Both the position numbers and the translations under genes were made by a program. Of a stretch of 64,000 nucleotides of DNA, positions 14,996 to 32,917 are shown piece after piece. The stretch spans positions 1,240,001 to 1,304,000 of the forward strand of contig NZ_JACCCJ010000001.1 of the NCBI RefSeq assembly GCF_013410105.1, given 5' to 3'. The notes under the pieces were generated by a model. That model saw only the letters and a list, made by a program, of their open reading frames with translations, did not search any database and was not told the origin of the DNA. The DNA comes from Sphingopyxis sp. JAI108. Its GTDB lineage: Bacteria; Pseudomonadota; Alphaproteobacteria; Sphingomonadales; Sphingomonadaceae. How positions within the stretch are numbered: position 1 is the first letter of the stretch; every line of letters starts with the position of its first letter.

Positions 14996-15895
14996 GTGGC
15001 GCGTTTGCCGATGCCGACCGACTATCTGGGGACCGCGATCGATTTCGCCGCGCCGACTGGCGAACCTGCGCTGCTCGCGCCCGACAGCGTCCAGTGGCGC
15101 GTGTACAAGAATCCGATCGCGCTCGGCATCGGCGGCATCGCGGCGGTGCTGCTCGAATTCGCCGAGCCGCGCATCCGGTCGGGGGTGTGGGACCATTCAA
15201 CCTACAAGACCGATCCGATCGCCCGCTCGCGCCGCACCGGTCTCGTCGCCATGCTCGCCTGTTATGGGTCCGCAAGCGCCGCGAAGGAGGTGATCGGCAA
15301 GGTCAACCGCATGCACGGCAAGGTGAAAGGCGAAACGCCGGTGGGGGAGAGATATCGCGCGATGGACCCGCTCCTGCTCGACTGGGTCGCGGCGACGGCT
15401 TCCTATGGTTTCCTGATGGCCTATGATCGTTTCGTCCACCCGCTGAGCGATGCCGACAAGGACCGCTTCATGCGCGACGGCGATGCGATCGGGCGCGAGT
15501 TCGGCGCGCGTCGCACCCCGCCAACGGTGGCTGCGTTCATGGACATGATGGCCGAACTCGAACCGCGCTTGGAGCCGCATCCGATCATCTTCGAATTCCT
15601 CGATATTATCCAGTCGGGCCGCGCTGCGCCGGGCGTGCCGCGTTTTCTGCATCGCGCCATCGCCCGCGCGTCGGTGTCGCTGCTGCCCGATCATATCCGG
15701 CACAAGCTGGCGCTTGGAACCCGCTACGACCTGACGCGGCGCGACCGCGCCGCGCTGCGCATCGCCGGCCGGCTCGCCGACCGACATGTCGATCGTGCGG
15801 CGCCGCATTGTCAGGCGAGCGTCCGCCTCGGCCTGCCGCATGATTTCCTGTTCAGATCACCCGCCCAGCAGCGGCTCTTGCTTGCCGCCGCTTAG
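14996..15895 (+). CDS. Oxygenase MpaB family protein (DUF2236)
   Basis: Protein of 299 residues from GTG 14996 with AAGGAGG upstream. It shows the DUF2236/MpaB pattern: GGIAAVLLEFAEPRIRSGVWDHSTYKTDPIARSRRTGLVAMLACYGSASAA, then HGKVKGETPVGERYRAMDP and a LLLDWVAATASYGFLMAYDRF helix. The family includes the fungal MpaB prenyl side-chain oxygenase and bacterial latex-clearing protein, both heme b enzymes that cleave C=C bonds; many bacterial members are uncharacterised. The conserved H-S-x(8)-R-x-x-R-T region is present. It lies 13 bp after a TonB receptor gene. Its stop codon overlaps that of the convergent amidohydrolase gene. Confidence 0.82.
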   Translation: MARLPMPTDYLGTAIDFAAPTGEPALLAPDSVQWRVYKNPIALGIGGIAAVLLEFAEPRIRSGVWDHSTYKTDPIARSRRTGLVAMLACYGSASAAKEVIGKVNRMHGKVKGETPVGERYRAMDPLLLDWVAATASYGFLMAYDRFVHPLSDADKDRFMRDGDAIGREFGARRTPPTVAAFMDMMAELEPRLEPHPIIFEFLDIIQSGRAAPGVPRFLHRAIARASVSLLPDHIRHKLALGTRYDLTRRDRAALRIAGRLADRHVDRAAPHCQASVRLGLPHDFLFRSPAQQRLLLAAA

Positions 15896-17589
15896 GAACA
15901 GCGGTTGAAGCCCGCGCCGCGCACCGCGCGCCCCGGTGTCGCGCCGCTATGTTCGCCGTTCCGTAGCACCGCGACGCCGTTGACGAACACGTCGCGCACG
16001 CCGACTGAATATTGGTGCGGCTTCTCGAAGGTCGACCGGTCGCCGATCACTGCCGGGTCGAACACCACGACATCGGCATAATAGCCGGGCCTGAGCGCCC
16101 CGCGATCCTTGATCCCCAAATTGGTCGCGGGCAGGGTGGTCAGACGATAGACCGCCTGTTCGAGCGGGATCAGCTTTTCGTCGCGGACATAGCGGCCGAG
16201 CAGCCGGGCGAAATTGCCATAGGTGCGCGGGTGTGCGCCCGATTTCAGGAAAACGCCCTCGGGCGCCTGCGACGCCGCATCGGATCCGAAGCTCATCCAC
16301 GGCAGCTGGATCTGCTTGCGGACATTGTCCTCGGACATCAGGAAATAGACGGTGCCGACGCGCGAGCCGTCCTCGACGACGAGGTCCATCGCCGTCTCTT
16401 CGGGCGACTTGCTGCGCATCGCCGCGACCTCCGCCAGCGTCTTGCCGGTCAGCGGCTTCAGCGCGTCATTCTTGAACCCCGACAGGATCATCTTGTCAGC
16501 GCCCGCGCCGAAATAGAGATTTTCCCAGTCGCTTCCGGGCTTCTTCATTTCCTCGGCAACGCGGGCGCGGATCGCCGGGTCTTTCAGGCGCTCGATCCAC
16601 TTCTCGAGCCCGCCCGCCTGCACCCACGTCGGCATCGCGGCGTCGAGCCCGGTGGCGCCCGCGGTATAAGTATACATATCGGTCGTGATCCGCAGTCCCG
16701 CGGCGCGGGCATCCTCGATCTTCTTCACGATCGCGCTGAGCTTGCCCCAATTGCTGCGCCCCGCCATCTTTAGGTGATAGATTTCCGCCGGCGCCCCCGA
16801 ACGGCGCGATATGTCGATCAACTCGTCGACCGCCTCCTCGATCCGGTCGCCTTCGGACCGCATGTGGCTGATATACATGCCGCCGCATTTCGCGGCCTCG
16901 CTCGTCAGCGCGACGAGTTCGTCGGTTTCGGCGTAGGAGCCGGGCGCATAGATGATCGAGCTGCCGACGCCCATCGCACCCTCGTTCATCGCCTGTCGCA
17001 CCAGCGCGCGCATCCGGGCAAGCTGCTCGGGGGTCGGATCGACGTCGCCCTCGCCCAGTTCGTGCACACGCACCGTCGCCGCGCCGACGAAGCTTGCGAT
17101 ATTGGTCGAAATGCCGCGTTTTTCGAGCCAGCCGAAATAATCGCCGAGCGTCGTCCATTCGATCGGATATTTGATGTCGCCCTGCCGCTCCGTTTCCTGG
17201 GCTTTCATCGCCGCGTTCATCGGTCCCATCGACCAGCCTTCGCCCATCACCTCCAGCGTAACGCCCTGGCGGATATCGCTCTGGCTTCTGGGATCGGCGA
17301 TCAGCGATTCGGTCGCCCAGCTCAGCATGTTGATAAAGCCGGGCGCGACCGCCATGCCCTTGGCCGAAACCTCGCTCTTCGCCGTTCCGTCGATCTTGCC
17401 CATCGCGACGATGCGATCGTCCTTGATTGCGACATCGCCGACGACGGGCGGCTTGCCCGACCCGTCATAGAGCGTGCCGCCGCGGATGATCAGGTCATAG
17501 GCCGGCGCCTGCGCGACTGCGGCGGCGGATATGAGCATCGAACTGCAAAGCAGCAACAGGGAGGGTGCGAAGCGCCGGTGCGATGCCAT
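15892..17589 (-). CDS. Amidohydrolase, N-acyl-D-amino-acid deacylase family
   Basis: Exported protein of 565 residues with a signal peptide to about AAVAQA. The urease-like amidohydrolase fold is clear: YDLIIRGGTLYDGSGKPPVVGDVAIKDDRIVAMG, VAPGFIN, and the C-terminal GALRPGYYADVVVFDP. The D-aminoacylase branch is indicated by GGMYISHMRSEGDRIEEAVDE (His 242), EIYHLKMAG (His 272) and SFGSDAAS (Asp 437). However, the PGFIDxHxH motif reads PGFINMLSW (residues 83-91), and the metal-bridging Cys region reads VMGEGWS, so the alpha-metal ligands are missing. It may use one metal or a different chemistry. It lies directly downstream of the XRE-cupin regulator gene (23-bp gap, same strand). Confidence 0.85.
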   Translation of the reverse strand: MASHRRFAPSLLLLCSSMLISAAAVAQAPAYDLIIRGGTLYDGSGKPPVVGDVAIKDDRIVAMGKIDGTAKSEVSAKGMAVAPGFINMLSWATESLIADPRSQSDIRQGVTLEVMGEGWSMGPMNAAMKAQETERQGDIKYPIEWTTLGDYFGWLEKRGISTNIASFVGAATVRVHELGEGDVDPTPEQLARMRALVRQAMNEGAMGVGSSIIYAPGSYAETDELVALTSEAAKCGGMYISHMRSEGDRIEEAVDELIDISRRSGAPAEIYHLKMAGRSNWGKLSAIVKKIEDARAAGLRITTDMYTYTAGATGLDAAMPTWVQAGGLEKWIERLKDPAIRARVAEEMKKPGSDWENLYFGAGADKMILSGFKNDALKPLTGKTLAEVAAMRSKSPEETAMDLVVEDGSRVGTVYFLMSEDNVRKQIQLPWMSFGSDAASQAPEGVFLKSGAHPRTYGNFARLLGRYVRDEKLIPLEQAVYRLTTLPATNLGIKDRGALRPGYYADVVVFDPAVIGDRSTFEKPHQYSVGVRDVFVNGVAVLRNGEHSGATPGRAVRGAGFNRCS

Positions 17590-17612
17590 ATCATTCTCCA
17601 GGGTCAGGTTAG

Positions 17613-18236
17613 TCAGCCGTGCAGGCTCATCAGCGAATCCATCAGTCCGTCGTCGGCGCTCGAGCAGACGCCGAGCACCAGCGCCTCCTCATATCCATCG
17701 GCGACGACATAGGCGTGGCCCATCGACGAATCGATATAGATGCCCTGGCCAACGTCGAGCGTGACCGGGTCGTAAAATTCACTGTGCACCTCGATCCGCC
17801 CTTCGAGGACATAGATGAACTCCTCGCCCTGGTGATGGACGAGTTCGCCGAATTCGCGCGCGCTGTGGGCGCGGATGCGCGTCAGGATCGGGATCATCCG
17901 TTTCTGGCGCAAATCGGTGCAGAGATAGTGATAGTCGTAATTATCGGTCGTGACGCGCGCCGCGCGTTCGATGGTCCCGATGCTGCGGCGTCCGGTGACG
18001 CGCGGTGCGGCATCTTCCTCATCCTCTGCGAAGAGGTCCGACATGCGAATCTTGAGTCGCTGGCTGAGCTGTTGGAGCTTGTCGTAGCTCAAAGTCAGCC
18101 GGTCGTGCTCGACCTTCGACAGCGTCGAAACAGGAATGCCCGACTTCGCGCTCATTTCCTTGAGCGTCCAGCCGTTGCGCGCCCTTATGCCCTTCATCAC
18201 CGCGCCGAGCGTCGGCGGGGTAGCACGGTCCGCCAT
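17613..18236 (-). CDS. XRE-family regulator with C-terminal cupin domain
   Basis: Two-domain regulator of 207 residues. ATG 18236 is chosen with GGAAA upstream; an in-frame TTG at 18248 is possible. Residues about 10-65 are an HTH_3 domain (GIRARNGWTLKEMSAKSGIPVSTLSKVEHDRLTLSYDKLQQLSQRL). Residues about 120-195 are a cupin (HHQGEEFIYVLEGRIEVHSEFYDPVTLDVGQGIYIDSSMGHAYV). Such XRE-cupin proteins, like PuuR, sense amines, amino acids or their derivatives and act mainly as repressors. It sits between the amidohydrolase and the divergent serine hydrolase genes. The promoter element in front of it recurs before the dipeptidase gene at 21449. Confidence 0.9.
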   Translation of the reverse strand: MADRATPPTLGAVMKGIRARNGWTLKEMSAKSGIPVSTLSKVEHDRLTLSYDKLQQLSQRLKIRMSDLFAEDEEDAAPRVTGRRSIGTIERAARVTTDNYDYHYLCTDLRQKRMIPILTRIRAHSAREFGELVHHQGEEFIYVLEGRIEVHSEFYDPVTLDVGQGIYIDSSMGHAYVVADGYEEALVLGVCSSADDGLMDSLMSLHG

Positions 18237-18255
18237 CAGTTTTTCCAATCCCCGT

Positions 18256-18290
18256 TTGACAATTTTCTAATCAGGATCATTATGTCCCTA
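18256..18290 (+). promoter_or_regulatory. Promoter/operator shared with 21386
   Basis: TTGACA (18256-18261) followed by ATTTTCTAATCAGGATC and CATTAT (18278-18283) looks like a vegetative promoter for the serine hydrolase gene. Twenty of the first 25 bases match the element at 21386-21410. The conserved TAATCAGGAT/GATTAGGACA part lies between -35 and -10, where a repressor would act. It is in the divergent region next to the XRE-cupin gene, the likely regulator. Confidence 0.55.
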
Positions 18291-18377
18291 TCGGGCTAAC
18301 AGTCGTTGGCCCTTGGTAAGGGGTCGCGCGGCTGGCCGCAAGGTGTTGCAGGACGCGCCAGACAAAAGGGGAAAGCG

Positions 18378-20357
18378 ATGCGTTTCATCCGCAAGGCGAT
18401 GATCGGGCTGGCGGCCTTTGCCGCACTGCCGCTGGCGGCGCAGGGGCCGGTGCCCGCGCCTGCCGTAAAGAAGGCCGAGGCAACTGCGTCGGCCGCCAAG
18501 ACAGCCGCGGCGCCGGCTTCGCTCGACCCCAAGGATCTCGAAGCCTGGATGGACGGATATCTGCCCTATGCGCTCGAACGCGGACGCATTCCGGGCGCAG
18601 TCGTCGTCGTCGTGCGCGGCGGCGAGGTCGTGCTTGAGAAGGGCTATGGCTATTCGGATGTCGCGAAGCGTGCGCCAGTCCTGCCCGAGACCACGCTTTT
18701 CCGCCCCGGTTCGGTGTCGAAGCTGCTGACCTGGACCGCGGTGATGCAGCAGGTCGAGGCGGGCAAGATCGATCTCGACAAGGACGTCAACGCGTACCTC
18801 GATTTCAAGATTCCGCCCTTTGAGGGCAAGCCGGTGACGATGCGCAACATCATGACGCACACCGCGGGCTTCGAGGAATCGGTGCGTCACCTGATCAGCA
18901 GCGATCCCAAGGCGGTGATGACGCTGAAGAAGCAGATGCCGCTCGCGCTGCCCGAACGCGTCTTCGCGCCGGGCACGACGCCGGCCTATTCCAACTATGC
19001 GACGGCGCTCGCGGGCTATATCGTCGAACGCGTCAGCGGCGAAAATTTCGACAATTATATCGAGAACCATATCTTCAAGCCGCTCGGCATGGCGCATTCG
19101 TCTTTCCGCCAGCCGCTCCCCGCGCGGCTCGCGCCGCATATGTCCAAGGGCTATCCCGACATCACGCAAAAGCCCGAGCCGTTCGAAATGGTCATCCCCG
19201 CGCCCGCGGGTAGCCTTTCGTCGAGCGGTGCTGACATGGCGAAGTTCATGATCGCGCATCTGAACAACGGTGCGGGGCTGATGAAGCCCGAAACCGCAAA
19301 GATGATGCACGATTTCAAGGCGCCCGGCGTCGGCCCGCTCAACAGCATGGCGCTTGGCTTCTATGAGCAATGGGTCAACGGCCACCGCGCCATCGCGCAT
19401 GGCGGCGATACCGTCTGGTTCCACTCCTATCTCTGGCTGTTCCCCGATGCCGATGTCGGAATCTTCGTGTCGATGAACAGCGCAGGCAAGGACGGCGCGG
19501 CGGGCGCGGTGCGTAGCGCGCTATTCCACAAATTCGCCGACCGCTACCTGCCGGGTCCGGCCGAAAAGCCGGCGCAGGTCGATGCCAAGACCGCCGCGCA
19601 GCACGCGCAGATGATGGTCGGCAATTACATCAGCAGTCGTGGCAGCTTCACCAACTTCATGAGCCTGTTCGGGCTGTTGGGACAGGCGACGATCGGATTG
19701 ACCGAGGATGGCAAGATCAGCCTTCCGGCGCTCGACGGGCTCGGCGCGGGCGCGCGCGACTGGGTCGAGGTCGAGCCCTTCGTGTGGCGCGACACCGGCA
19801 CCGGCGAGCGGCTTGCCGCCGAGGTGAAGGACGGCCGCGTCGTGCGGTGGAGCGTCGACGCCGGATCGCCTTTCATGGTGTTCGAACCCGCGCCTGCCAG
19901 CGTCAACGCCGCCTGGCTCAATCCCGCGCTGATCTTCGCCTTTGGCATCATCCTGCTCGCCGCGCTGGCGTGGCCGGTGCGTGCGATGGTCCGCCGCAGC
20001 TTCAAGGCCGACTTTGCGCTTACGGGCAAGTCGCTCCGCGCCTATCGCCTGTCGCGCGTCTTCGCCTGGCTCGCGATCGGCGCGCTCGTCGGCTGGATCG
20101 GGTTGATCGCCGCCTTCTCGGCCGACATCGGCAGCATCGGCGGCCCGCTCGACTGGCTCATCCACCTGCTGCGCATCCTGACCCCGCTCGCCGCCTTCGG
20201 GCTGCTCGCGACGGCCGCCTGGCACTTGTGGCTCGCTATCAAGGACAAGCGGCGCTGGACGATGAAGCTCGGCGCGGTGCTGCTGATCCTCGCCGCGCTG
20301 ATACTCGTCTGGGTGACGCTCGTCTTCCACCTCTACGGCTTTGGGATGGTCTATTGA
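18378..20357 (+). CDS. Serine hydrolase, class C beta-lactamase fold, with C-terminal membrane domain
   Basis: Protein of 659 residues from ATG 18378 (AAAGGGGAAAGCG upstream). Signal peptide about 1-21, then a penicillin-recognising serine hydrolase domain (about 50-400): Ser112-x-x-Lys115 in RPGSVSK, Tyr204-Ser-Asn206, and HGG in AIAHGGDTVW. Residues about 525-659 hold roughly four membrane segments, so the catalytic domain is tethered on the periplasmic side. Relatives include D-Ala-D-Ala carboxypeptidases, D-aminopeptidases and esterases. In this locus a peptidase acting on D-residue peptides is plausible but not shown. The stop overlaps the ATG of the epimerase gene (TGATG), so the two genes are coupled. 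Confidence 0.9.
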   Translation: MRFIRKAMIGLAAFAALPLAAQGPVPAPAVKKAEATASAAKTAAAPASLDPKDLEAWMDGYLPYALERGRIPGAVVVVVRGGEVVLEKGYGYSDVAKRAPVLPETTLFRPGSVSKLLTWTAVMQQVEAGKIDLDKDVNAYLDFKIPPFEGKPVTMRNIMTHTAGFEESVRHLISSDPKAVMTLKKQMPLALPERVFAPGTTPAYSNYATALAGYIVERVSGENFDNYIENHIFKPLGMAHSSFRQPLPARLAPHMSKGYPDITQKPEPFEMVIPAPAGSLSSSGADMAKFMIAHLNNGAGLMKPETAKMMHDFKAPGVGPLNSMALGFYEQWVNGHRAIAHGGDTVWFHSYLWLFPDADVGIFVSMNSAGKDGAAGAVRSALFHKFADRYLPGPAEKPAQVDAKTAAQHAQMMVGNYISSRGSFTNFMSLFGLLGQATIGLTEDGKISLPALDGLGAGARDWVEVEPFVWRDTGTGERLAAEVKDGRVVRWSVDAGSPFMVFEPAPASVNAAWLNPALIFAFGIILLAALAWPVRAMVRRSFKADFALTGKSLRAYRLSRVFAWLAIGALVGWIGLIAAFSADIGSIGGPLDWLIHLLRILTPLAAFGLLATAAWHLWLAIKDKRRWTMKLGAVLLILAALILVWVTLVFHLYGFGMVY

Positions 20358-21364
20358 TGGCGACGCAGAGCAGGCAGAAAATGACGCTCGACCTTCGGGT
20401 CGGGCGTTTTCCCTATCATCAGCCGTTCCGCATTTCGGGGCATGTCTTCACCGAAACCGCGCTGCTCGTCGCCGAGATATCCGACGGCTCGCATGTCGGG
20501 CGCGGGGAGGGGGCCGGGGTCTATTATCTCGGCGACGATATCGATCATATGCTCGCCGAAGCGACCGGCGTGCGCGATGCGATCGAGCAGGGCGCGACGC
20601 GCGCGGAACTGCAACAGCTCCTTCCGCCCGGCGGTGCCCGCAATGCGCTCGACTGTGCTTTCTGGGATCTCGAAGCCAAGCAGGCGGGCCGCCCCGTGTG
20701 GGAGCTTGCCGGGCTGGAATCCCCGAAAGCACTGCGATCGACGCTGACTCTGGGCGCCGACAGCCCGGACAATATGGCGAAAGCCGCACTGGCGATCGAC
20801 GCGCAAGCCCCGGTCAAGGTCAAGCTGACCGGCGATTTGACAGACGACATCGCGCGGGTCGTCGCAATCCGCACGGCGCGGCCCGATGCGTGGATCGGCG
20901 TCGATGCCAATCAGGGTTATGACATCGGCACGCTTTCCGACCTGCTGCCGGTTCTCGTCTCGATGCGCATCGCGCAGCTCGAGCAGCCATTGAAACGCGG
21001 GCGCGAGGCCGATCTCGACGGCCTCAAGCGGCCCTTGCCCTTCGTCGCCGACGAAAGCGCGCTGTCACTTACCGACACCGCCTCGCTTGTCGGGCGCTTC
21101 GACGTCGTGAACATCAAGCTCGATAAATGTGGCGGGCTGACCGAGGGGCTGGCGATCGCGCGGCAGGCGAAGAAGCTCGGCCTCGACGTGATGGTCGGCA
21201 ACATGATGGGCACAAGCCTGTCGATGGCACCCTCCTACCTGGTCGGGCAGCTGTGCGACATCGTGGATCTCGACGGGCCGACCTTTCTTGCGCGCGATCG
21301 CGTGCCCGGCGTCGAATATCGCGATGGCATGATTCATTGTCCGGCGGAAATTTGGGGTTCGTGA
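20357..21364 (+). CDS. dgcA: Dipeptide epimerase / N-acetyl-D-Glu racemase-type enolase-superfamily enzyme (DgcA-like)
   Basis: Enolase-superfamily enzyme of 335 residues. Catalytic lysines in VKVKLTGD (Lys154/156) and NIKLDKCGG (Lys254), with metal ligands Asp183 (GVDANQGY), Glu209 (LEQPL) and Asp232 (ADES), are all present, as in L-Ala-D/L-Glu epimerase. The DLDGP motif (Asp304-x-Asp306) resembles the DxD pair that binds the dipeptide alpha-amino group in that enzyme. A close alternative is DgcA, which converts N-acetyl-D-glutamate to N-acetyl-L-glutamate in the DgcN-DgcA pathway; a DgcN-type gene lies at 24803. The start overlaps the serine hydrolase stop. The symbol is provisional. Confidence 0.85.
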   Translation: MATQSRQKMTLDLRVGRFPYHQPFRISGHVFTETALLVAEISDGSHVGRGEGAGVYYLGDDIDHMLAEATGVRDAIEQGATRAELQQLLPPGGARNALDCAFWDLEAKQAGRPVWELAGLESPKALRSTLTLGADSPDNMAKAALAIDAQAPVKVKLTGDLTDDIARVVAIRTARPDAWIGVDANQGYDIGTLSDLLPVLVSMRIAQLEQPLKRGREADLDGLKRPLPFVADESALSLTDTASLVGRFDVVNIKLDKCGGLTEGLAIARQAKKLGLDVMVGNMMGTSLSMAPSYLVGQLCDIVDLDGPTFLARDRVPGVEYRDGMIHCPAEIWGS

Positions 21365-21372
21365 CAATTTGA

Positions 21373-21413
21373 TGTCCTAAATGGGTTGACAATTTTCCGA
21401 TTAGGACAATAGT
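21373..21413 (+). promoter_or_regulatory. Promoter with 8-bp inverted repeat, shared with 18256
   Basis: TGTCCTAA (21373-21380) and TTAGGACA (21401-21408) form a perfect 8-bp inverted repeat flanking a -35 TTGACA at 21386-21391. The segment TTGACAATTTTC followed by GATTAGGA matches the element in front of the serine hydrolase at 18256. A -10 near 21408-21414 is weak. It drives the dipeptidase gene at 21449 and probably the genes to 29731. Repression by the XRE-cupin protein is inferred. Confidence 0.55.
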
Positions 21414-21448
21414 CTTGAAATTGAGATTTTCGTAAGAAGGAGGCTGGA

Positions 21449-22591: not shown

Positions 22592-22595
22592 GACG

Positions 22596-24782
22596 ATGAA
22601 CAAGGGACTTTTGGTAGCAGCAAGCATGGTCGCGGTGATCGCCGCGATGCCGGTACAGGCGCAGGAAGCGGGGGCGATCGAAGCCGCGGGCGAGATCGTT
22701 GTGACCGCACAGAAGCGCGTTCAGAATGTGCAGGACGTGCCGATCTCGATCTCGGTGGTCAGCGGCGAGGAACTGCAGGAACAGGGCTCGGCCTCGCTCG
22801 TCGACTATGCGGGCTATGTTCCCGGCATGAACGTCAGCAACGGCGGCACGCCTGGCCAGACGACGATCACGCTGCGCGGCGTCGCACCGCTCAATGCCAG
22901 CCAGACGGTCGGCATCTATCTCGACGATGCGCCGGTCGGGTCGAGCGCGCTCTATAACCGCGCTGGGCAGTTCACCATCGACCTCATGCCCTATGACCTC
23001 GAACGCATCGAAGTGCTCAAAGGCCCGCAGGGCACGCTCTATGGCGCGAGTTCGATCGGCGGCCTGGTCAAATATGTTACCGTCCAGCCCGACACGCGCG
23101 AATTCAAGGTGCGCGCGGGCGTCGAAGGTTTCACGATCAAGGACGCCGGCAGCCTCGGCTGGGGTGGGCAGGTCTATGTCAATGCGCCGATTGCGACCGA
23201 CACGCTCGCGATTTCGGGCAGCTTCGCATGGCGCAAGACGCCGGGCTGGGTCGACAGCGTCAACAATGCCGCGCTCAAGGACCAGAACGACTATGAACAG
23301 CGCGGCGGTCGCGCCGCGCTGCTGTGGCAGCCGACCCCCGAGCTCAGCGTAAAGCTCGCCGGCATCTGGCAGTCGCTCGATTCTGACGGCAATGGCCTCT
23401 ATGCCGCCGATCTCGACGGCAACCGTTTGGGCAACGGCCATTCGTTCAACAATTATGTGCCCGAATCCTACGACGTCGATCTCGATTATTATTCGGCGAC
23501 GATCGACTATGATTTCGGCGCGGCGACGCTGACGTCTGCGACGACCTACAGCAAAACGCAGAGCCGGCAGGTACAGGACGCGAGCTATGCGTTCGGCGTG
23601 CTTTTCCCGCTGCTCACCGGCGGTGCCATCGATCCCGGCATCACACCTTTCTCGCTCGACCTCGGGCTCAAGAAATGGACGCAGGAAGTCCGTCTCGCTT
23701 CGCCGAGCGGCGGGCGTTTCGAATGGATGATCGGCGGCTTCTTCACCGATGAAGAGACGAGCAATGCGCAGCTTGTCCGCTCGTTCGATATGGACGGCAA
23801 TGTCATCGCGCCGCTCGATCCGCTGGCGATCGTCGGCCTTCCGGCGACCTACAAGGAATATGCGATCTTCGGCAATGCGACTTTCAAGCTGAGCGAGCAG
23901 TTCGAGGTGACCGGCGGCCTTCGCTGGGCGCGCAACGAGCAGACCTTTACCCAGATCAGCTCGGGGGCGATCGTCCCCAGCGCCAATGATCCGGGCGAGT
24001 CGGCCGAAAGCGTCTGGACCTTCTCGGTCAGCCCGCAGTTCCATATCAACGAAGACGCCATGCTCTATGCGCGCGTCGCGACGGGCTATCGCCCCGGCGG
24101 CCCGAACGTCATCGTCCCCAATGTCCCGCCCAGCGTCGATGCCGACCGCATGACCAATTACGAGGTCGGGCTGAAAGCCGACTTCGCCGACCGCATGGTG
24201 TCGGTCGATGCCGCCTTCTTCTGGATGGACTGGACCGATATCCAGGTCACGCGCGCTTTCGGCGGCGTATCGGGCGGCGCGAACGGCGGCAAGGCGACGA
24301 GCAAGGGCTTCGAGGGTAGCCTGGCGCTGCGCCCGGCGCCGGGCCTGACGATCAGCGCCACCGGAAGCTACACCGACGCGAGCCTCAGCGAGGATGTGCC
24401 CGATATCAGCGGCCTCGACGGCGACCGCTTGCCCGCTGTACCCAAGTTCAGCGGCGCGCTGCGCGCCGATTATGCGTTCGAGCTGGGCGGCGGCAACCGG
24501 GGCAGCTTCGGCGCCGGCATCCGCCACGCGAGCAACCGCCTGTCGCTCGTCGAGAGCGATCCGCTCGTCGCGCGCGCCAAGGCTTACACCTCGGTCGACC
24601 TCAATGCGTCGGTGACCTTCGATGATCACTGGACGCTGCGCGCCTATGCGCGCAATCTGCTCGACAACAAGGGCGAGATGGCGCGGTCGACGCTTGCCGA
24701 CGGGATCAACCAGCCGAGCTTCCTAGCGATCTCGCCATTGCAGCCGCGCACGATCGGTGTCGCGCTCGACATGGCATTCTGA
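22596..24782 (+). CDS. TonB-dependent receptor
   Basis: Outer-membrane receptor of 728 residues from ATG 22596, preceded by GGGGGTAAG. Signal peptide to about MPVQAQ, TonB-box-like EIVVTAQKRVQNVQDVPISIS, plug with ITLRGVAPLNASQTVGIYLDDAP and DLERIEVLKGPQGTLYGASSIGG, and a barrel ending RTIGVALDMAF. It is encoded between an M19-family protein and the DUF1611 gene and is closely spaced with both, so it should import the peptide or D-amino-acid-containing compound that this operon degrades. Confidence 0.95.
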   Translation: MNKGLLVAASMVAVIAAMPVQAQEAGAIEAAGEIVVTAQKRVQNVQDVPISISVVSGEELQEQGSASLVDYAGYVPGMNVSNGGTPGQTTITLRGVAPLNASQTVGIYLDDAPVGSSALYNRAGQFTIDLMPYDLERIEVLKGPQGTLYGASSIGGLVKYVTVQPDTREFKVRAGVEGFTIKDAGSLGWGGQVYVNAPIATDTLAISGSFAWRKTPGWVDSVNNAALKDQNDYEQRGGRAALLWQPTPELSVKLAGIWQSLDSDGNGLYAADLDGNRLGNGHSFNNYVPESYDVDLDYYSATIDYDFGAATLTSATTYSKTQSRQVQDASYAFGVLFPLLTGGAIDPGITPFSLDLGLKKWTQEVRLASPSGGRFEWMIGGFFTDEETSNAQLVRSFDMDGNVIAPLDPLAIVGLPATYKEYAIFGNATFKLSEQFEVTGGLRWARNEQTFTQISSGAIVPSANDPGESAESVWTFSVSPQFHINEDAMLYARVATGYRPGGPNVIVPNVPPSVDADRMTNYEVGLKADFADRMVSVDAAFFWMDWTDIQVTRAFGGVSGGANGGKATSKGFEGSLALRPAPGLTISATGSYTDASLSEDVPDISGLDGDRLPAVPKFSGALRADYAFELGGGNRGSFGAGIRHASNRLSLVESDPLVARAKAYTSVDLNASVTFDDHWTLRAYARNLLDNKGEMARSTLADGINQPSFLAISPLQPRTIGVALDMAF

Positions 24783-24802
24783 GCGAATTGGAGTTGGACA
24801 AG

Positions 24803-25843
24803 ATGAACGCGCCCACCGGCAGGCTGGCCGAAAGCCTGACCCTGCCGCAACCCTATCTGCTGTTCCTCGGCGACACGACCGAGGCGGGCTATGCCAAGAC
24901 CGCCTTTGGCCTCGCCGACTGGGCGGCTGACCGCTGCGTCGGCGAGTATGGGATCGGCGCCTGCTCGGTCAGCGCCGGCTTGCCGCGGCTGTCGCCTGAC
25001 GAGGCCCGCGCGGCGGGAGCGCAGTCGCTGGTGATCGGCGTCGCGAACCAGGGCGGCGTCATCGGCGACGCCTGGGTCGCCGTGCTTGTCGAGGCGATGG
25101 AGGCGGGGCTCGACATTGTCAGCGGGCTCCACACACGGCTGACGAGCATCCCCGCGCTCGTCGAGGCTGCGAAACGGACCGGCCAGCGGCTGATCGACGT
25201 GCGCACGCCGCCGCCGTCGATCCCGATCGCCAACGGCCGCAAGCGCAGCGGCAAGCGCCTGCTGACGGTTGGCACCGATTGCGCGCTCGGCAAGAAATAT
25301 ACCGCGCTCGCGCTCCATCGGGCCTTTGTCGCGCGCGGAATCGACGCCGATTTTCGCGCCACCGGCCAGACCGGGATCATGATCGCGGGCGGCGGGATGC
25401 CGATGGACGCGGTGGTCTCCGATTTCGAGGCGGGGGCGGCGGAGATATTGAGCCCCGACGCGCCCGAAGACCATTGGGACCTGGTGGAGGGGCAGGGGTC
25501 GATCTTCAATCCTGCCTATGCCGCGGTATCGCTTGGCCTGCTCCACGGCAGTCAGCCCGACGTGTTCGTCGTCTGCCACGATCCGGCGCGCAAGGTGATC
25601 CTGGGCATGGAAAGCTTCGCGCTTCCCAGCATCGAGGAGGTGATCGACCTGACGATCCGCCTCGGCAGCCGGACCAATCCGGCGATCCGCTGCGGCGGGG
25701 TGAGCCTCAACACCTCGGCCTATGACGCCGATGCCGCCGAGGCGCTGATGGCGGCCGAACGGCAACGCCTGGGGTTGCCCGTAGCCGACCCGATCCGCGG
25801 CGGCGCGTCGTTCGACGCGCTCGTCGAAAACTGTCTCGCATGA
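24803..25843 (+). CDS. dgcN: DUF1611 family protein, D-glutamate N-acetyltransferase DgcN-like
   Basis: Cytosolic protein of 346 residues. ATG 24803 has GGAG nine bases upstream; an upstream in-frame TTG at 24788 is less likely. The DUF1611 pattern includes LGDTTEAGYAKTAFGLADW, a P-loop-like GTDCALGKKYTA (157-168), GQTGIMIAGGG and DLVEGQGSIFNPAYAAVSLGLLHGSQPD. DgcN proteins of this family acetylate D-glutamate so that DgcA can racemise it to N-acetyl-L-glutamate. The epimerase at 20357 belongs to the DgcA/dipeptide-epimerase family. Here the two genes are separated by a dipeptidase and a receptor gene. The function is inferred from family and context. The ATG of the next gene overlaps its stop (ATGA). 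Confidence 0.82.
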   Translation: MNAPTGRLAESLTLPQPYLLFLGDTTEAGYAKTAFGLADWAADRCVGEYGIGACSVSAGLPRLSPDEARAAGAQSLVIGVANQGGVIGDAWVAVLVEAMEAGLDIVSGLHTRLTSIPALVEAAKRTGQRLIDVRTPPPSIPIANGRKRSGKRLLTVGTDCALGKKYTALALHRAFVARGIDADFRATGQTGIMIAGGGMPMDAVVSDFEAGAAEILSPDAPEDHWDLVEGQGSIFNPAYAAVSLGLLHGSQPDVFVVCHDPARKVILGMESFALPSIEEVIDLTIRLGSRTNPAIRCGGVSLNTSAYDADAAEALMAAERQRLGLPVADPIRGGASFDALVENCLA

Positions 25844-26979
25844 GTGTGGGCGAGACGGGTGGCAGGTCGAGCTGGTTCCAGCGCTTCCTGCTGCCCGGTT
25901 TCGCGTTGAAGGCCGTCATCATCGGCGGCGGCTATGCCACGGGGCGCGAGCTGGCCGAATATTTCGTGCCGTCGGGGCCGTGGGGCGGGCTGGCCGCGAT
26001 GCTGCTCGCGACCTTGATCTGGAGCATCGTCGCGGCGCTGACCTTCGCGCTCGCGCGCCGGATGCAGGCTTATGACTACCGCAGCTTCTTCGAAGGCCTG
26101 CTCGGCCCCGCCTGGATCGCGTTCGAAGGCGCCTATCTGATTTTCGTCGTGTTGATCATCGCGGTGTTCGGTGCGGCGGCGGGCGCGATCGGCGCAGCGA
26201 CCTTCGGCTGGCCCGACCTCGCCGGGTCGGTGCTGCTGGCGCTCAGCATCCTCGGTTTCACCGCCTTCGGCACGGCGCTTGTCGAGACATTGTTCAAATA
26301 TGCCTCGATGCTGATCTACGCGGTCTATGCGCTGTTCCTTGTGTTCGCGCTCGCCAGCTTTGGCGAAATGATCGGAAGCGGCTTCGCGAATGCGCCGCCG
26401 CCGTCGGGCAATTGGGTGGCGGGCGGCATCACCTATGCGAGTTATAATATCGTCGGTGCGGTCGTCATCCTGCCCGTCCTCCGCCACCTCACCAGCCAGC
26501 GCGACGCAGTCGTCGCGGGGCTGATCGCGGGGCCGCTGACGATGCTGCCGGCAATCCTCTTCTTCGTCGCGATGATGGCTTTTTACCCTGCGATCGGCAG
26601 CGAAACCTTGCCTTCGGATTTCCTGCTGCGGCAGATGGCCGTGCCGGGCTTTCATATATTGTTCCAGATGATGATCTTTGCCGCGCTGCTCGAAAGCGGC
26701 GTCGGCGCGATCCATGCGATCAACGAACGCGTCTCGGGCGTCGTCGAGGCGCGCGGGCGGCCGCCGCTCGGCACCGGCCCGCGCGCCGCGATCGGGACGC
26801 TCGTTCTTGTCGGCTGCATGTTCGTCGCTGCGCGCGTCGGTCTCGTCGACCTGATCGCCAGTGGCTATCGTTTCCTCGCCTGGCTTTTCCTCGCGGTCTT
26901 CGTTCTGCCCTTGCTGACGATCGGGACCTGGCGCCTGCTTCGTCCCGCACCCGCTCCCCAAATGGAGGCCTTGCCATGA
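25840..26979 (+). CDS. YkvI-like polytopic membrane transporter
   Basis: Inner-membrane protein of 379 residues with about ten hydrophobic helices and almost no soluble domain. It begins FLLPGFALKAVIIGGGYATGRELAEYFVPSGPWGGL, a pattern typical of the YkvI/BCCT-APC-like permeases. Middle helices contain YASYNIVGAVVILPVLRHLTSQRDA and LPAILFFVAMMAFYPAIGSETLPSD. Substrates of the family are unproven. Lying between the DgcN-like gene and a peptidase gene, with 4-bp ATGA overlaps on both sides, it is the best candidate for inner-membrane uptake of the amino acid or dipeptide released in the periplasm. Confidence 0.82.
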   Translation: MSVGETGGRSSWFQRFLLPGFALKAVIIGGGYATGRELAEYFVPSGPWGGLAAMLLATLIWSIVAALTFALARRMQAYDYRSFFEGLLGPAWIAFEGAYLIFVVLIIAVFGAAAGAIGAATFGWPDLAGSVLLALSILGFTAFGTALVETLFKYASMLIYAVYALFLVFALASFGEMIGSGFANAPPPSGNWVAGGITYASYNIVGAVVILPVLRHLTSQRDAVVAGLIAGPLTMLPAILFFVAMMAFYPAIGSETLPSDFLLRQMAVPGFHILFQMMIFAALLESGVGAIHAINERVSGVVEARGRPPLGTGPRAAIGTLVLVGCMFVAARVGLVDLIASGYRFLAWLFLAVFVLPLLTIGTWRLLRPAPAPQMEALP

Positions 26980-28553
26980 AAGCCGTTCGCCTGCTCGCCC
27001 TGTCGCTGATGCTGTCGGTCGCCGCGCCCGCATGGGCCGAGCCGCCCGCCGACATCGGCGAAAGCGTCGAGGCGCTGCGCAAGAAGGTCGGCGCGGCGGG
27101 CGTGTCGATCGCGATCGTCGAGGACAGCAAGACGACGTTGTCGCGCGGCTGGGGCGTGCGCAAGCTCGGCGAGCGCGCGCCGGTCGATGCGCAGACGATC
27201 TTCCAGACCGGATCGACCGGCAAGGCGATGACCGCCGCGGCGCTTGCGATCCTCGTCGACGAAGGCAAGATCGCGTGGGACGATCCGGTGATCAAACATA
27301 TGCCCTGGTTCCGCATGTACGACGCCTGGGTAACCCGCGAGATCACGATCCGCGACCTGCTTGTCCATAGAAGTGGGCTGGGGCTGGGGCAGGGGGACCT
27401 GATGTTCGTGCCGCGCACGCATCTGACGCGCAAGCAGACGGTCGAGCGCGTCGCCTATTTGAAGCCCAAGACGAGTTTTCGCTCGGCCTATGCCTATGAC
27501 AATATCCTCTATGCCGTCGCGGGTCAGCTGATCGAGGAAGTCACCGGGCAGACGTGGGAGGATTTCATCCGCGCCCGCGTGCTGCGCGCCGGCGGCATGA
27601 AGAATGCGACGAGCGACAGCGAAGACCGATTCCGTATCGCGAACCGCAGCTGGCCGCACGCCCGGCTGTCGGGCGCGCTGCGTGGGCTGGGCCCGCAACA
27701 GGCGCTCGACGAACGCGACGAGCTCGGCCGCAACGGCGCCCCCGCTGGCGGGCTCGCGCTCAGCGCCGACGACATGGCGGCGTGGCTCAAGATCCAGCTT
27801 GCGCACGGCGCGCTCCCCAACGGAAAACGCCTGTTCAGCGAGAAGCAGGCGGCGGAAATGTGGGCGCCGGTGACACCGATGCCGATCACGCCGCTTCCCG
27901 ACCAGCTCAAGCCCGCGCAGCCGACGCAGCAGGCCTATGCGCTCGGCTGGCAGGTGCAGGATTATCGCGGCCACCGCATCATCCAGCACGGCGGCGGCGT
28001 CTTCGGGTCGATCACGCGCGTCGTCATGATCCCCGACAAAAATGTCGGCTTCGCGATCATGATGAACAGCGAGGACAGCGGGATGCTCCTCGGCCTCACC
28101 TACGACCTTCTCGATCATTATCTGGACCAGGGCGAGTATGGCTGGATCCAGAAGTGGGAAGACTGGTATCAGGCGCGGCTCGCGGGGGGCGAGGCGTTCC
28201 TGAAGCAGTCGAAGGCGTCGCCGGCGCAGAGCGGTCCCTCGCTCGCGCTGGCGCGCTACGCCGGGCGCTACCGCGATCCCTGGTATGGCGATGTCGTCGT
28301 GGGGTCGGGCGCGAACGGGCTGACGATCGATTTCACCTCGACGCCGCGGATGGCGGGGCGGCTCAAGCATTGGCAATATGACAGCTTCGTCACCAAGTTC
28401 GACGATCCGGCGATCGAGCCCGCCTATGTCACCTTCGCGCTCGACGCCGACGGCAAGGTGACGGGCGTGACGATGAAGGCGGTGAGCCAGATCGCCGACT
28501 TCAGCTGGGACTATCACGATCTGGATTTGAAGCCCGTGGAGGACACGAAATGA
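26976..28553 (+). CDS. Serine hydrolase, class C beta-lactamase fold
   Basis: Exported protein of 525 residues, signal peptide to about APAWA. Ser80-Thr-Gly-Lys83 in QTGSTGK is the SxxK nucleophile motif, YDN in AYAYDNILY is the YxN motif and RIIQHGGGVFGS carries the HxG motif. The C-terminal 110 residues (GRYRDPWYGDVVVGSGANG onward) look like the DUF3471 domain found after this fold. Such proteins include D-aminopeptidases, DD-peptidases and esterases. Start and stop overlap the neighbouring genes by 4 bp, so it is an integral member of the operon. It differs from the hydrolase at 18378 in lacking the membrane domain. Confidence 0.9.
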   Translation: MKAVRLLALSLMLSVAAPAWAEPPADIGESVEALRKKVGAAGVSIAIVEDSKTTLSRGWGVRKLGERAPVDAQTIFQTGSTGKAMTAAALAILVDEGKIAWDDPVIKHMPWFRMYDAWVTREITIRDLLVHRSGLGLGQGDLMFVPRTHLTRKQTVERVAYLKPKTSFRSAYAYDNILYAVAGQLIEEVTGQTWEDFIRARVLRAGGMKNATSDSEDRFRIANRSWPHARLSGALRGLGPQQALDERDELGRNGAPAGGLALSADDMAAWLKIQLAHGALPNGKRLFSEKQAAEMWAPVTPMPITPLPDQLKPAQPTQQAYALGWQVQDYRGHRIIQHGGGVFGSITRVVMIPDKNVGFAIMMNSEDSGMLLGLTYDLLDHYLDQGEYGWIQKWEDWYQARLAGGEAFLKQSKASPAQSGPSLALARYAGRYRDPWYGDVVVGSGANGLTIDFTSTPRMAGRLKHWQYDSFVTKFDDPAIEPAYVTFALDADGKVTGVTMKAVSQIADFSWDYHDLDLKPVEDTK

Positions 28554-29731
28554 AGCATATCGCGATCCTGCTGGCCGCAACGGCACTCACGGCCTGCTCG
28601 ACCGGAGGCGACAAGCCGAAGGAGGCGCCCGACGCGCCGCTGCACAGCCGGATGCTCGTGCTCGACACGCACCTCGACACCCCGCTCCATTTCGAACGCG
28701 CGGGCTGGAGCTTTGCCGATCGTCACGCGCTCGCCGACGACATTTCGCAGCTCGACATTCCGCGGATGAAGGACGGCAATCTCGACGGCGGCTTTTTCGC
28801 CATCTACACCGAGCAGGGGCCATTGACGCCAAAGGGTTACGCCGATGCACTCGCCTTCGCGCGCAAGCGTTCGGACCTGATCGACAGCACCATCGCCAAA
28901 TATCCCGAAGTCATCGCTCCCGCCTTGACGGCACCCGATGCGCTGCGGCTGAACAAGGAAGGCAAGCTGATCGCCTTCAAGTCGATGGAGAACAGCTATC
29001 CGCTCGGCGAAGACCTTTCGCTGCTTCAGGAATTTTACGACAAGGGCCTGCGCCTCGCGGGGCCGGTGCATTCGAAGGACAATCAGTTCGCCGACAGCGC
29101 GACGGGGGCTGGGCGCTGGAAAGGGCTGAGCCCGCTCGGCAAACAGTGGGTCGCAGAGATGAACCGTCTCGGCATCGTGATCGATGCGAGCCATTCGTCC
29201 GACGCGGCGTTCGACCAGCTATTGGCGCTGTCGAAATATCCGATCCTGCTTTCGCACTCGAGCCTGCGATCGGCCTATGACCATCCGCGCAACCTCGACG
29301 AGGGCCGATTGAAGGCGCTCGCGGCGAAGGGCGGCGCCATGTGCATCTCGACGATCTTCATGTCGGAGATGAACATGTCGCCCGCGCGCGGCGAGCTGTT
29401 CGGCAAATATGAACGGATCGGCACGCTCTCGCCCGCCGAGCAGGCCGACCTCAACCGCCAGTGGCGCGAACTCGACAAGACCGAAAAATTGTGGGCGGCC
29501 GATTTCGACGCCTATATGACGATGGTGCTGCGCGCGATCGAGGTCGGCGGCGTCGACCATATCTGCTTCGGCGCCGACTGGGACGGCGGCGGCGGACTGC
29601 CGGGCATTGAGGATGTCTCGGCGCTGCCCAAGGTCACCGAGCGGCTGAAGGCGGCGGGTTATTCGGACGTCGACATCGAGAAGATGTGGAGCGGCAACAT
29701 CCTGCGCGTGCTCGCGGCGCAGGGGAAATAG
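28550..29731 (+). CDS. M19 membrane-type dipeptidase, lipoprotein
   Basis: Protein of 393 residues with a lipoprotein signal (LAATALTAC, acylated Cys16). All M19 zinc ligands are visible: His41-x-Asp43 in LDTHLDTPLHF, Glu in SMENSYPLGED, His in VIDASHSSDA, His in LLSHSSLRSAYDHPRN, and Asp in CFGADWDGGGG. It should hydrolyse dipeptides, including L-D dipeptides that ordinary peptidases leave, in the periplasm at a membrane face. It is the last gene of the operon, starting within the serine hydrolase stop codon. It is convergent with dctD, six bases from the other stop codon. Confidence 0.93.
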   Translation: MKHIAILLAATALTACSTGGDKPKEAPDAPLHSRMLVLDTHLDTPLHFERAGWSFADRHALADDISQLDIPRMKDGNLDGGFFAIYTEQGPLTPKGYADALAFARKRSDLIDSTIAKYPEVIAPALTAPDALRLNKEGKLIAFKSMENSYPLGEDLSLLQEFYDKGLRLAGPVHSKDNQFADSATGAGRWKGLSPLGKQWVAEMNRLGIVIDASHSSDAAFDQLLALSKYPILLSHSSLRSAYDHPRNLDEGRLKALAAKGGAMCISTIFMSEMNMSPARGELFGKYERIGTLSPAEQADLNRQWRELDKTEKLWAADFDAYMTMVLRAIEVGGVDHICFGADWDGGGGLPGIEDVSALPKVTERLKAAGYSDVDIEKMWSGNILRVLAAQGK

Positions 29732-32868: not shown

Positions 32869-32885
32869 GTGCGGATTATTGCACA
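32868..32885. promoter_or_regulatory. Putative DctD binding site 1
   Basis: TGTGCGGATTATTGCACA: inverted 5-bp ends TGTGC/GCACA around 8 bp. It overlaps the dctB start codon. Fourteen of 18 positions match site 2, which begins 32 bp downstream (three helical turns). The layout resembles the tandem DctD sites upstream of rhizobial dctA. Confidence 0.5.
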
Positions 32886-32899
32886 GATATTTGCAAACC

Positions 32900-32917
32900 T
32901 ATGCGGAAAGTTGCACA
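32900..32917. promoter_or_regulatory. Putative DctD binding site 2
   Basis: TATGCGGAAAGTTGCACA is the second copy of the 18-bp element, in the same orientation. It lies about 170 bp upstream of the dctA start. No convincing sigma54 promoter (GG-N10-GC type) lies between it and dctA; the following stretch 32941-32990 is AT-rich. Confidence 0.45.

What the first reader, a model, noticed from the sequence alone, without database searches (positions are those of the whole stretch)
15892..29731. A possible integrated D-glutamate/muropeptide scavenging system
One continuous block encodes a TonB receptor, periplasmic or lipoprotein peptidases (two M19-type proteins, two class-C serine hydrolases, an N-acyl-D-amino-acid-deacylase homologue), a YkvI-like permease, and both a DUF1611 (DgcN-type) and an enolase-superfamily (DgcA/dipeptide-epimerase-type) enzyme, next to an XRE-cupin regulator. 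The known DgcN-DgcA pathway converts D-Glu through N-acetyl-D-Glu. Here it seems fused to machinery that frees D-Glu from L-Ala-D-Glu peptides or other D-residue peptides. I know of no described system with this composition; it may be a new outer-membrane-to-cytoplasm D-amino-acid pathway.
Basis: partly seen in the sequence, partly recalled or inferred. Interest (0 to 1): 0.75.

Follow-up and report, generated by a model that had tools for sequence, protein, structure and literature searches.

The report
Sphingomonad operon for D-amino-acid peptides

Summary
The gene set and coordinates are confirmed. The block is a conserved sphingomonad operon: XRE-cupin regulator (with a D-aminoacylase homologue) facing S12a-DgcA-M19a-TonB receptor-DgcN-permease-S12b-M19b. 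Its promoter/operator is unique in the host genome and recurs in sister loci. Of the best 80 permease loci in named genomes, 75 have DgcN beside the permease.

The D-glutamate/muropeptide reading is weakened. The window's DgcN and DgcA miss NCBIfam's equivalog cut-offs (448.9/480; 364/400 bits); a second pair in the same host passes both (526.6; 426). The 20s-loop Arg of DgcA is Gly in the window and in all 38 permease loci with a called DgcA, but Arg in all 18 LysR loci. M19a and the deacylase homologue lack usual metal-site residues.

Best reading: a D-residue peptide utilisation operon for non-glutamate, probably neutral residues, inverted in the cytoplasm as N-acetyl derivatives and/or dipeptides. 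A related cluster in another order has the epimerase, but no DgcN was found in that genome. The receptor gene appears to be exchanged between species. No substrate was tested.

The parts
15892..17589 (-). D-aminoacylase-family amidohydrolase (DAA), signal-peptide-like N-terminus; HxH motif replaced (FINMLSW), zinc-binding Cys absent; His, His and Asp columns appear kept; lies behind the regulator on the same strand
   Evidence: Pfam PF07969; closest PDB 1rjp D-aminoacylase, with alignment; motifs
17613..18248 (-). XRE-cupin regulator, divergent from the operon (likely start 18236)
   Evidence: HTH_3 + Cupin_2; family present in 38 of 47 G-type, 0 of 27 R-type and 10 of 27 other loci
18256..18287 (+). 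Conserved promoter/operator TTGACAATTTTCTAATCAGGATCATTATGTCC
   Evidence: Only site in the host genome at up to 3 mismatches, control 0; chance expectation 0.00 in the window; distribution over loci; sigma-70-like hexamers
18378..20357 (+). S12a: exported S12 serine hydrolase (SVSK, YSN) with beta domain and four C-terminal helices, likely membrane-spanning
   Evidence: Pfam PF00144; motifs; AF2 model pLDDT 82.6; Foldseek hits include Lip3 DL-peptidase 9sn1
20357..21364 (+). DgcA-like enolase-superfamily epimerase, no signal peptide seen; 20s loop SGHVF instead of SRG, 50s loop VYYLGDD instead of PRYGES
   Evidence: NF042940 364 bits against cut-off 400; residue tables; tree
21449..22591 (+). 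M19a: M19-family protein with Tat-like signal; HxD and the Glu not conserved
   Evidence: Pfam PF01244; closest PDB 2i5g; IDML at the HxD site in 28 of 65 M19 proteins of these loci
22626..24782 (+). TonB-dependent receptor (ORF from 22551); apparently replaced as a cassette in related loci
   Evidence: Pfam Plug + barrel; break points; two-peaked identity; receptor types
24788..25843 (+). DgcN-like DUF1611 protein, no signal peptide seen
   Evidence: Pfam PF07755/PF17396; NF041892 448.9 bits against cut-off 480; PDB 7xrj E 2e-101
25840..26979 (+). PERM: inner-membrane permease, LeuT/APC-type fold, no significant Pfam or NCBIfam match
   Evidence: AF2 pLDDT 89.7; best Foldseek match BasC 6f2g, TMq 0.71, 14% identity; best Pfam E 0.043 among 20 members
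26976..28553 (+). S12b: exported S12 serine hydrolase with DUF3471; STGK at 80, YDN at 174
   Evidence: Pfam; PDB matches include ClbP and D-peptidases; motifs
28550..29731 (+). M19b: lipoprotein-type M19 dipeptidase homologue with HxD, Glu, His, His and Asp in the alignment
   Evidence: Pfam PF01244; PDB 2rag E 2.3e-121 with alignment; LTAC lipobox

Best explanation
A dedicated operon for using peptides that contain D-amino acids other than glutamate, probably neutral or hydrophobic ones. Shown by sequence: gene content and order, export signals, one conserved divergent promoter beside a resident XRE-cupin regulator, and absence of the 20s-loop Arg in the epimerase. Inferred: the TonB receptor imports oligopeptides; the two S12 hydrolases (S12a membrane-anchored) cut at D-residues; M19b splits L-X-D-Y dipeptides in the periplasm. 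PERM (and POT in some sister loci) brings free amino acids or small peptides into the cell. There the DgcA-like epimerase inverts the D-residue in an N-acylated form, made either by DgcN-like N-acetylation of the free D-amino acid or present as a dipeptide. The product enters L-amino acid metabolism. XRE-cupin releases the promoter when the substrate or a product binds.
For: Conserved synteny: 43 of 44 PERM genes in 101 loci lie about 1 kb on the 3' side of DgcN, 42 of 44 on its strand; 75 of the best 80 PERM loci in named genomes have adjacent DgcN, 70 of those 75 with an epimerase gene in the stretch. Operator unique in the host and conserved. The host has a separate pair that passes the DgcN and DgcA cut-offs; the window pair fails both. 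DgcA residue 28 is Gly in 47, Arg in 27 and other in 3 of 77 rows; it is Gly in 38 of 38 loci with PERM and a called DgcA, and Arg in 18 of 18 loci with LysR. Within those two residue classes position 57 is Tyr 93% against Arg 85%. By tree: a 55-row clade with 53 G, 2 other and no R; a 34-row clade with 33 R and 1 other; a 7-row clade with 6 G and 1 other. G-type loci carry M19 32/47, S12 44/47, POT 15/47, LysR 0/47, SDF 2/47; R-type loci M19 1/27, S12 6/27, POT 0/27, LysR 18/27, SDF 12/27. S12 relatives in the PDB include Lip3 DL-peptidase, ClbP and alkaline D-peptidase. PERM's best fold match is BasC, an amino-acid transporter.
Against: No substrate is shown. That the 20s-loop Arg binds the Glu side chain is recalled; the papers were not held. 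DgcN evidence is weaker: Arg46 is kept in G-type loci of other families (L210, L212, L214), and positions 40 and 225 already differ in Ruegeria DgcN. Window-type DgcA has Arg at 175 and 214 where canonical ones have Ala; these might serve an acidic group. No gene for an N-acetyl-L-amino acid deacetylase was recognised in the block. The top-ranked S12 matches include esterases, PBP-like proteins and AmpC, and PERM also matches Nramp metal transporters. The deacylase family and the large receptor family do not favour G-type loci: 15/47 and 6/47 against 18/27 and 10/27 in R-type. A DctA carrier lies just downstream.
Confidence: 0.55

Rival explanations
1. One reading: the operon frees and catabolises D-glutamate from L-Ala-D-Glu or other murein peptides through N-acetyl-D-Glu.
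For: DgcN and DgcA homology is strong although below cut-off; M19b is a full-site dipeptidase homologue; the enolase keeps the DLD motif and its second-best PDB match is the E. coli L-Ala-D/L-Glu epimerase 1jpd.
Against: The host has another pair that passes both cut-offs; residue 28 is Gly in 38 of 38 PERM loci with a called DgcA; the transporter and regulator partners differ from canonical loci; no murein endopeptidase, LD-carboxypeptidase or amidase family was hit in the block.
Confidence: 0.15
2. The epimerase is purely a dipeptide epimerase acting on imported L-X-D-Y dipeptides; DgcN does a separate accessory job.
For: G842 and G959 (another order of the class, 99 and 100% complete) hold related clusters with POT, PERM and S12b (the G842 stretch also XRE, S12a and epimerase), window-type epimerases at 521 and 532 bits, and no DgcN match at E 0.001; POT lies in 15 of 47 G-type loci; Asp304 and Asp306 are invariant in 20 of 20 aligned window-type DgcA.
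Against: Most canonical DgcA rows printed also keep DLD, so the motif does not decide; DgcN stays beside PERM in 75 of the best 80 named loci, 70 of which also have an epimerase gene.
Confidence: 0.2
3. A defence or detoxification operon against D-residue peptide antibiotics or other S12/M19 substrates rather than a feeding pathway.
For: S12a and S12b have ClbP, Lip3 and AmpC-type relatives; the receptor is replaced between close relatives, as surface targets of phages or bacteriocins often are (recalled).
Against: A receptor and a permease that would import the compound, followed by cytoplasmic inversion enzymes, suit catabolism better than detoxification.
Confidence: 0.1

Closest known systems
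DgcN-DgcA D-glutamate pathway (NCBIfam NF041892, NF042940)
   Same: Homologous DUF1611 N-acetyltransferase and enolase-type racemase, encoded in one locus
   Different: Window pair is below both equivalog cut-offs; DgcA comes first with two genes between; 20s-loop Arg absent; APC-type permease, XRE-cupin, S12, M19 and TonB receptor where canonical loci often have LysR and an SDF symporter
L-Ala-D/L-Glu epimerase and murein-peptide salvage (YcjG/MpaA, YkfABCD; composition recalled)
   Same: Enolase-superfamily epimerase with the Lys/Asp/Glu catalytic set and DLD
   Different: No NlpC/P60, M14 or LD-carboxypeptidase hit in the block; SGHVF/VYYLGDD loops instead of the SRG/PRYGES type
mlr microcystin-degradation genes (MlrB, MlrD)
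   Same: Sphingomonad periplasmic serine hydrolase plus dipeptide/tripeptide permease (PMC12474180, Table 1 and passages seen); POT-family permease in sister loci
   Different: No CAAX-protease (MlrA) or M81 (MlrC) hit in the block; MlrB and MlrD themselves were not compared by sequence; DgcN/DgcA, TonB receptor and M19 are not named as mlr genes in the passages seen
Lip3 DL-peptidase (PDB 9sn1) and ClbP
   Same: S12 catalytic domain; Lip3 chain of 663 residues against 659 in S12a; 'DL-peptidase' in the entry title
   Different: About 22% identity; substrate of S12a unknown
Polysaccharide utilisation loci (recalled kind)
   Same: One regulated block from outer-membrane receptor to cytoplasmic catabolism, with related copies in one genome
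   Different: Peptidases and inversion enzymes rather than glycoside hydrolases; no SusD-type hit in the block

Membership tests
DgcN (NF041892) | Score above the curated equivalog cut-off (480 bits) | tested here: not met
   Window 448.9; controls: host C5 copy 526.6 and Ruegeria TM1040 551.4 pass; S. yanoikuyae cluster 428.9 fails
DgcA (NF042940) | Score above the curated equivalog cut-off (400 bits) | tested here: not met
   Window 364; host C5 copy 426 and Ruegeria 507.9 pass; S. yanoikuyae 352.8 fails; the host's third homologue also fails, 386.9
DgcA / L-Ala-D/L-Glu epimerase | Arg of the 20s loop (SRG/ARG) as in 4gfi and 1jpd | tested here: not met
   Gly28 in the window; of 77 rows 47 Gly, 27 Arg, 3 other; Ruegeria DgcA has the Arg. 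Its role in Glu binding is recalled
Enolase superfamily, MLE subgroup | Catalytic KxK, metal ligands D-E-D and a second Lys | tested here: met
   K154, K156, D183, E209, D232, K254, K257 invariant in 20 aligned members; roles recalled
Canonical dgcN-dgcA pair | dgcN directly followed by dgcA | tested here: not met
   DgcA lies upstream of DgcN with M19a and the TonB receptor between
Murein-peptide salvage | Murein-specific endopeptidase, amidase or LD-carboxypeptidase in the block | tested here: not met
   None among the Pfam hits of the ten block proteins at E 0.001; rest of genome not tested
D-aminoacylase | HxH, zinc-binding Cys, His, His and catalytic Asp | tested here: not met
   HxH replaced and Cys absent; His/His/Asp columns appear kept; in the related PpOngB, passages say the HxH His residues are needed for activity (PMC12017989)
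M19 membrane dipeptidase (M19b) | HxD, Glu, His, His, Asp (ligand set recalled) | tested here: met
   Alignment to 2rag; LDTHLD motif
M19 membrane dipeptidase (M19a) | HxD, Glu, His, His, Asp (ligand set recalled) | tested here: not met
   IDML in place of HxD; Gln at the Glu position in the alignment to 3id7
S12 serine peptidase | SxxK and YxN | tested here: met
   S12a SVSK and YSN; S12b STGK and YDN (the narrower pattern had missed them)
D-residue specificity of the pathway | Activity on a D-amino acid or D-residue peptide | not testable with these tools
   Needs enzyme assays and mutants

The most novel reading that the evidence does not exclude
A new kind of locus, built like a polysaccharide utilisation locus but for D-residue peptides. 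It pairs an exchangeable TonB receptor cassette with D-specific peptidases, an uncharacterised LeuT-fold permease and a second DgcN/DgcA class retuned from D-glutamate to neutral D-amino acids, under a private XRE-cupin operator. With its relatives (genomes with up to at least 7 DgcN homologues of several kinds) it gives some sphingomonads a repertoire for nonribosomal and other D-peptides.
Probability: 0.4. Interest if true: 0.78.

Novelty: new variant of a known kind. Interest (0 to 1): 0.6.

Why it matters
D-residue peptides are a slowly degraded pool (murein remains, nonribosomal antibiotics, cyanobacterial toxins). A complete outer-membrane-to-cytoplasm route for non-glutamate D-residues would explain how common water and soil bacteria use them. 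It would put a function on a transporter family that the Pfam and NCBIfam scans here did not recognise, and give a second specificity to the DgcN/DgcA enzymes. The claim is directly testable: the epimerase loop makes a sharp prediction about substrate, and a second, canonical pair in the same genome is a built-in control. The receptor exchange at a fixed operon position also offers a natural experiment on what drives receptor change.

Tried and rejected
Chance co-location: rejected by gene order conserved over many species. Reading the downstream DctA as part of the pathway: it is a true DctA by NCBIfam (651.1 against 513) with two-component genes beside it; an SDF gene follows M19b in several Sphingopyxis loci, so a link is not excluded. 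The SDF symporter of canonical loci as a proven glutamate carrier: not supported, the three tested score far below the DctA and GltP cut-offs. DgcN residues as an equally strong argument: weakened. DLD as proof of dipeptide use: rejected, since most canonical DgcA rows have it too. Fisher values printed are not used as tests: the loci are related, and the residue label needs only 4 changes on the DgcA tree. A count of Gly and Arg within classes that I had defined by that same residue is circular; I replaced it by counts over loci sorted by neighbour genes and by the tree; the odds did not need to change. Literature: listings of searches showed no paper on this gene set; several lists were capped (one search showed 8 of 32, 8 of 2,266, 12 of 37, 20 of 26, 15 of 16). 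I recall a paper that first described DgcN-DgcA and two on dipeptide-epimerase specificity; none was held under the ids tried.


Full report
What is there. Pfam and NCBIfam scans, translations and PDB sequence searches identify, on the minus strand, a D-aminoacylase-family amidohydrolase (15892-17589) and an XRE-cupin regulator (17613-18248). On the plus strand come S12a, a DgcA-like enolase, M19a, a TonB receptor, a DgcN-like DUF1611 protein, a permease (PERM), S12b and M19b, ending at 29731. With the start sites chosen by my script the plus-strand genes overlap by 1-4 bases or are 5-102 bases apart. Export signals, read by eye and with a simple script, fit a layout of receptor, periplasmic hydrolases and cytoplasmic DgcN/DgcA: an AxA-type signal in S12b, a Tat-like RR in M19a, a lipobox in M19b, none seen in DgcA or DgcN. 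No signal-peptide predictor was at hand. The nearest named genomes by PERM are Sphingopyxis (93% identity at best).

Conservation. In the window's family 85 of 298 genomes drawn have a DgcN homologue; 28 of those 85 have two or more matches and 11 have four or more, up to 7 (at most 7 candidates were scored per genome, so 7 is a floor). These homologues are of several kinds. I fetched 100 neighbourhoods of up to 20 kb. The order XRE < > S12a, DgcA, (M19a), TonB receptor, DgcN, PERM, S12b, M19b or deacylase recurs again and again. Over the 101 loci with the window, PERM was called in 44: 43 lie about 1 kb on the 3' side of DgcN, 42 of 44 on its strand. In named genomes 541 PERM relatives were found and the best 80 kept; 75 of these have DgcN beside PERM on the same strand, and 70 of the 75 also hold an epimerase gene. 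Of the other five, L153 is cut off at PERM; L158, L176, L184 and L196 lack an adjacent DgcN. In wide draws PERM is rare: 7 of 398 genomes of the phylum, of which 4 are partial matches under 50 bits, and 5 of 289 of the class, 1 of them at 35 bits; both counts include the host. Named plasmid copies are in Sphingobium yanoikuyae pKN1 and Novosphingobium sp. EMRT-2.

A private promoter. Between regulator and S12a lies TTGACAATTTTCTAATCAGGATCATTATGTCC. It is the only such site in the host genome at up to three mismatches, with zero control hits. The 29-base core has 0 expected chance matches in the window and is exact in 51 of the 221 loci then held, some of which are the same place fetched twice. 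Counting loci with distinct sites, 103 of 186 hold a match at 7 or fewer mismatches; the reversed control pattern never does better than 10. By DgcA class in the first 101 loci, a match at 7 or fewer is present in 36 of 47 G-type, 0 of 27 R-type and 8 of 27 others. A copy with 2 mismatches lies in the related cluster of G842, of another order. Its hexamers fit a sigma-70 promoter (10 of 12); another promoter-like site lies at 21386, before M19a; the region gave 6 such sites against 2.5 expected. That XRE-cupin binds the site is inferred.

Two classes. Of 77 aligned DgcA proteins, residue 28 of the window numbering is Gly in 47, Arg in 27 and another residue in 3. The structures 4gfi and 1jpd show the Arg form in the alignments, and so does Ruegeria DgcA. 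Sorted by neighbours rather than by the residue: 38 of 38 loci with PERM and a called DgcA have Gly (6 more PERM loci have no called DgcA), and 18 of 18 loci with LysR have Arg. By tree, the window type lies in a clade of 55 rows (100/100) with 53 Gly, 2 other and no Arg; a clade of 34 rows holds 33 Arg and 1 other; a third clade of 7 rows, mostly from other families, holds 6 Gly and 1 other and falls with the Arg clade under the midpoint root, which is for drawing only (two remote rows left out). That this Arg reads the Glu side chain is recalled from dipeptide-epimerase work, not taken from a call; a passage of PMC13338154 says that the Thermotoga epimerase accepts dipeptides with hydrophobic C-terminal residues. 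G-type loci carry PERM 38/47, XRE 38/47, M19 32/47, S12 44/47, POT 15/47, LysR 0/47, SDF 2/47; R-type loci 0/27, 0/27, 1/27, 6/27, 0/27, 18/27 and 12/27; 27 loci fit neither class, most of them without a DgcA. The deacylase family (15/47 against 18/27) and the large receptor family (6/47 against 10/27) go the other way. These counts are not independent, as the loci are related. NCBIfam agrees with a split: the window pair fails both equivalog cut-offs, while the host's other pair on contig C5 and the Ruegeria pair pass. For DgcN the class differences are less clean: Arg46 to Ala and Met170 to Lys hold in the family set, but some G-type rows of other families keep Arg46.

What the other parts say. 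S12a and S12b have PDB relatives that include alkaline D-peptidase, ClbP and, for S12a and S12b alike, 9sn1, which titles Lip3 DL-peptidase, of 663 residues. The lists also hold esterases, PBP-like proteins and AmpC, some ranked higher. S12a is modelled with a catalytic domain, a beta domain and four C-terminal helices. PERM has a LeuT/APC-type fold, nearest BasC, an amino-acid transporter, with Nramp transporters also among the first matches, and no member of a 20-protein set has a convincing Pfam match. POT, a di/tripeptide-transporter family, sits between DgcA and the receptor in many sister loci. M19b keeps the dipeptidase site. M19a has IDML in place of HxD, as have 28 of 65 M19 proteins of these loci. 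The deacylase homologue lacks HxH and the zinc-binding Cys; of 65 family members in these loci, 8 share its INMLSW, 12 have IDMMDQS and 31 have HxH at that place. In a related enzyme, PpOngB, passages say that the HxH His residues are needed for activity (PMC12017989), so this protein should not be called a D-aminoacylase on homology.

Receptor exchange. Of 41 named loci with DgcN at 80% identity or more to the window, the receptor is at 80% or more in 25, at 60% or less in 16, and in between in none (L138 and L140 come from one contig). With the window, the 42 receptors fall into types of 26, 5, 3, 2, 2, 2 and 1 sequences; representatives are 36-61% alike between types where a value was obtained. 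One further row (L146) failed in my extraction and one (L136) is a fragment. One type is shared by a Sphingopyxis, a Sphingomonas and a Pelagerythrobacter locus (L118, L155, L165). In L118, L141, L147 and L161 the DNA similarity to the window, elsewhere 82-89%, breaks at the receptor gene only; in L118 about the first 150 codons of the receptor are still alike. The receptor therefore seems to change by replacement while the enzymes stay. Whether diet or escape from phages or bacteriocins drives it is open, and I made no comparison with other receptor genes of these genomes.

How it most likely works. The receptor takes up D-residue peptides; S12a, S12b and M19b cut them in the periplasm; PERM, and POT where present, import products; DgcA inverts the D-residue as an N-acyl compound. 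Two supplies are possible: N-acetyl-D-amino acid made by DgcN, or an imported dipeptide. The cluster in G842 (XRE, S12a, DgcA with GYVF/GVYY loops, POT, PERM, S12b, deacylase homologue) lies in a genome without a DgcN match, and G959 of the same genus has none either. So at least there the epimerase seems to work without DgcN, which favours dipeptides. Which D-residue is handled is inferred only.

Against this reading. No activity is known for any protein here. The window-type DgcA has Arg at positions 175 and 214 that could serve an acidic group. A DctA carrier and two-component genes adjoin the block. The D-Glu reading keeps about 15% in my estimate.

Novelty. The paper listings seen for DgcN/DgcA, DUF1611, dipeptide epimerase with TonB/M19/S12, and D-peptide use in sphingomonads showed no description of this gene set; the library holds only open-licence papers and some lists were capped. 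Parts are known families; the combination, the non-canonical enzyme class, the private operator and the receptor exchange are new to me. I file it as a new variant of a known kind.

Noticed in passing
L118, L141, L147, L161 against window 22626-24782: The TonB receptor gene alone appears replaced in an otherwise conserved operon; several receptor types recur across species.
   Followed up: partly
window 29738-34422: A sigma-54 response regulator and sensor kinase (-) followed by a true DctA (+) adjoin the block; in several Sphingopyxis loci an SDF gene follows M19b.
   Followed up: partly
L222 (G842), L223 (G959): Related clusters in another order of the class with PERM and POT (L222 also XRE, operator and epimerase) in genomes in which no DgcN was found.
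   Followed up: yes
L206 (host C1 near 128074): A second, distant PERM homologue in the host beside a TonB receptor and a LysR gene.
   Followed up: no
L114 (Haladaptatus plasmid): A PERM homologue (about 30%) beside a maleate isomerase-family gene, an M24 peptidase and IclR, hinting at a wider role of this transporter family.
   Followed up: no
L112 (Bradyrhizobium sp. 155 plasmid p155_2): A DgcA-like and DUF1611 gene pair among IS110 elements on a conjugative plasmid.
   Followed up: no
L138 and L140 (Sphingopyxis sp. HIX contig NZ_LNSB01000045.1): The same cluster at both ends of one contig in opposite orientation; may be an assembly artefact.
   Followed up: no
L207 (host C1 near 768982): A third DgcA/epimerase homologue in the host, with the Arg-type 20s loop and no DgcN match in the 20-kb stretch.
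   Followed up: no
DgcN matches in G047, G295, G144 and G140: Some DgcN matches read with one in-frame stop; pseudogene or overlong alignment, not decided.
   Followed up: no
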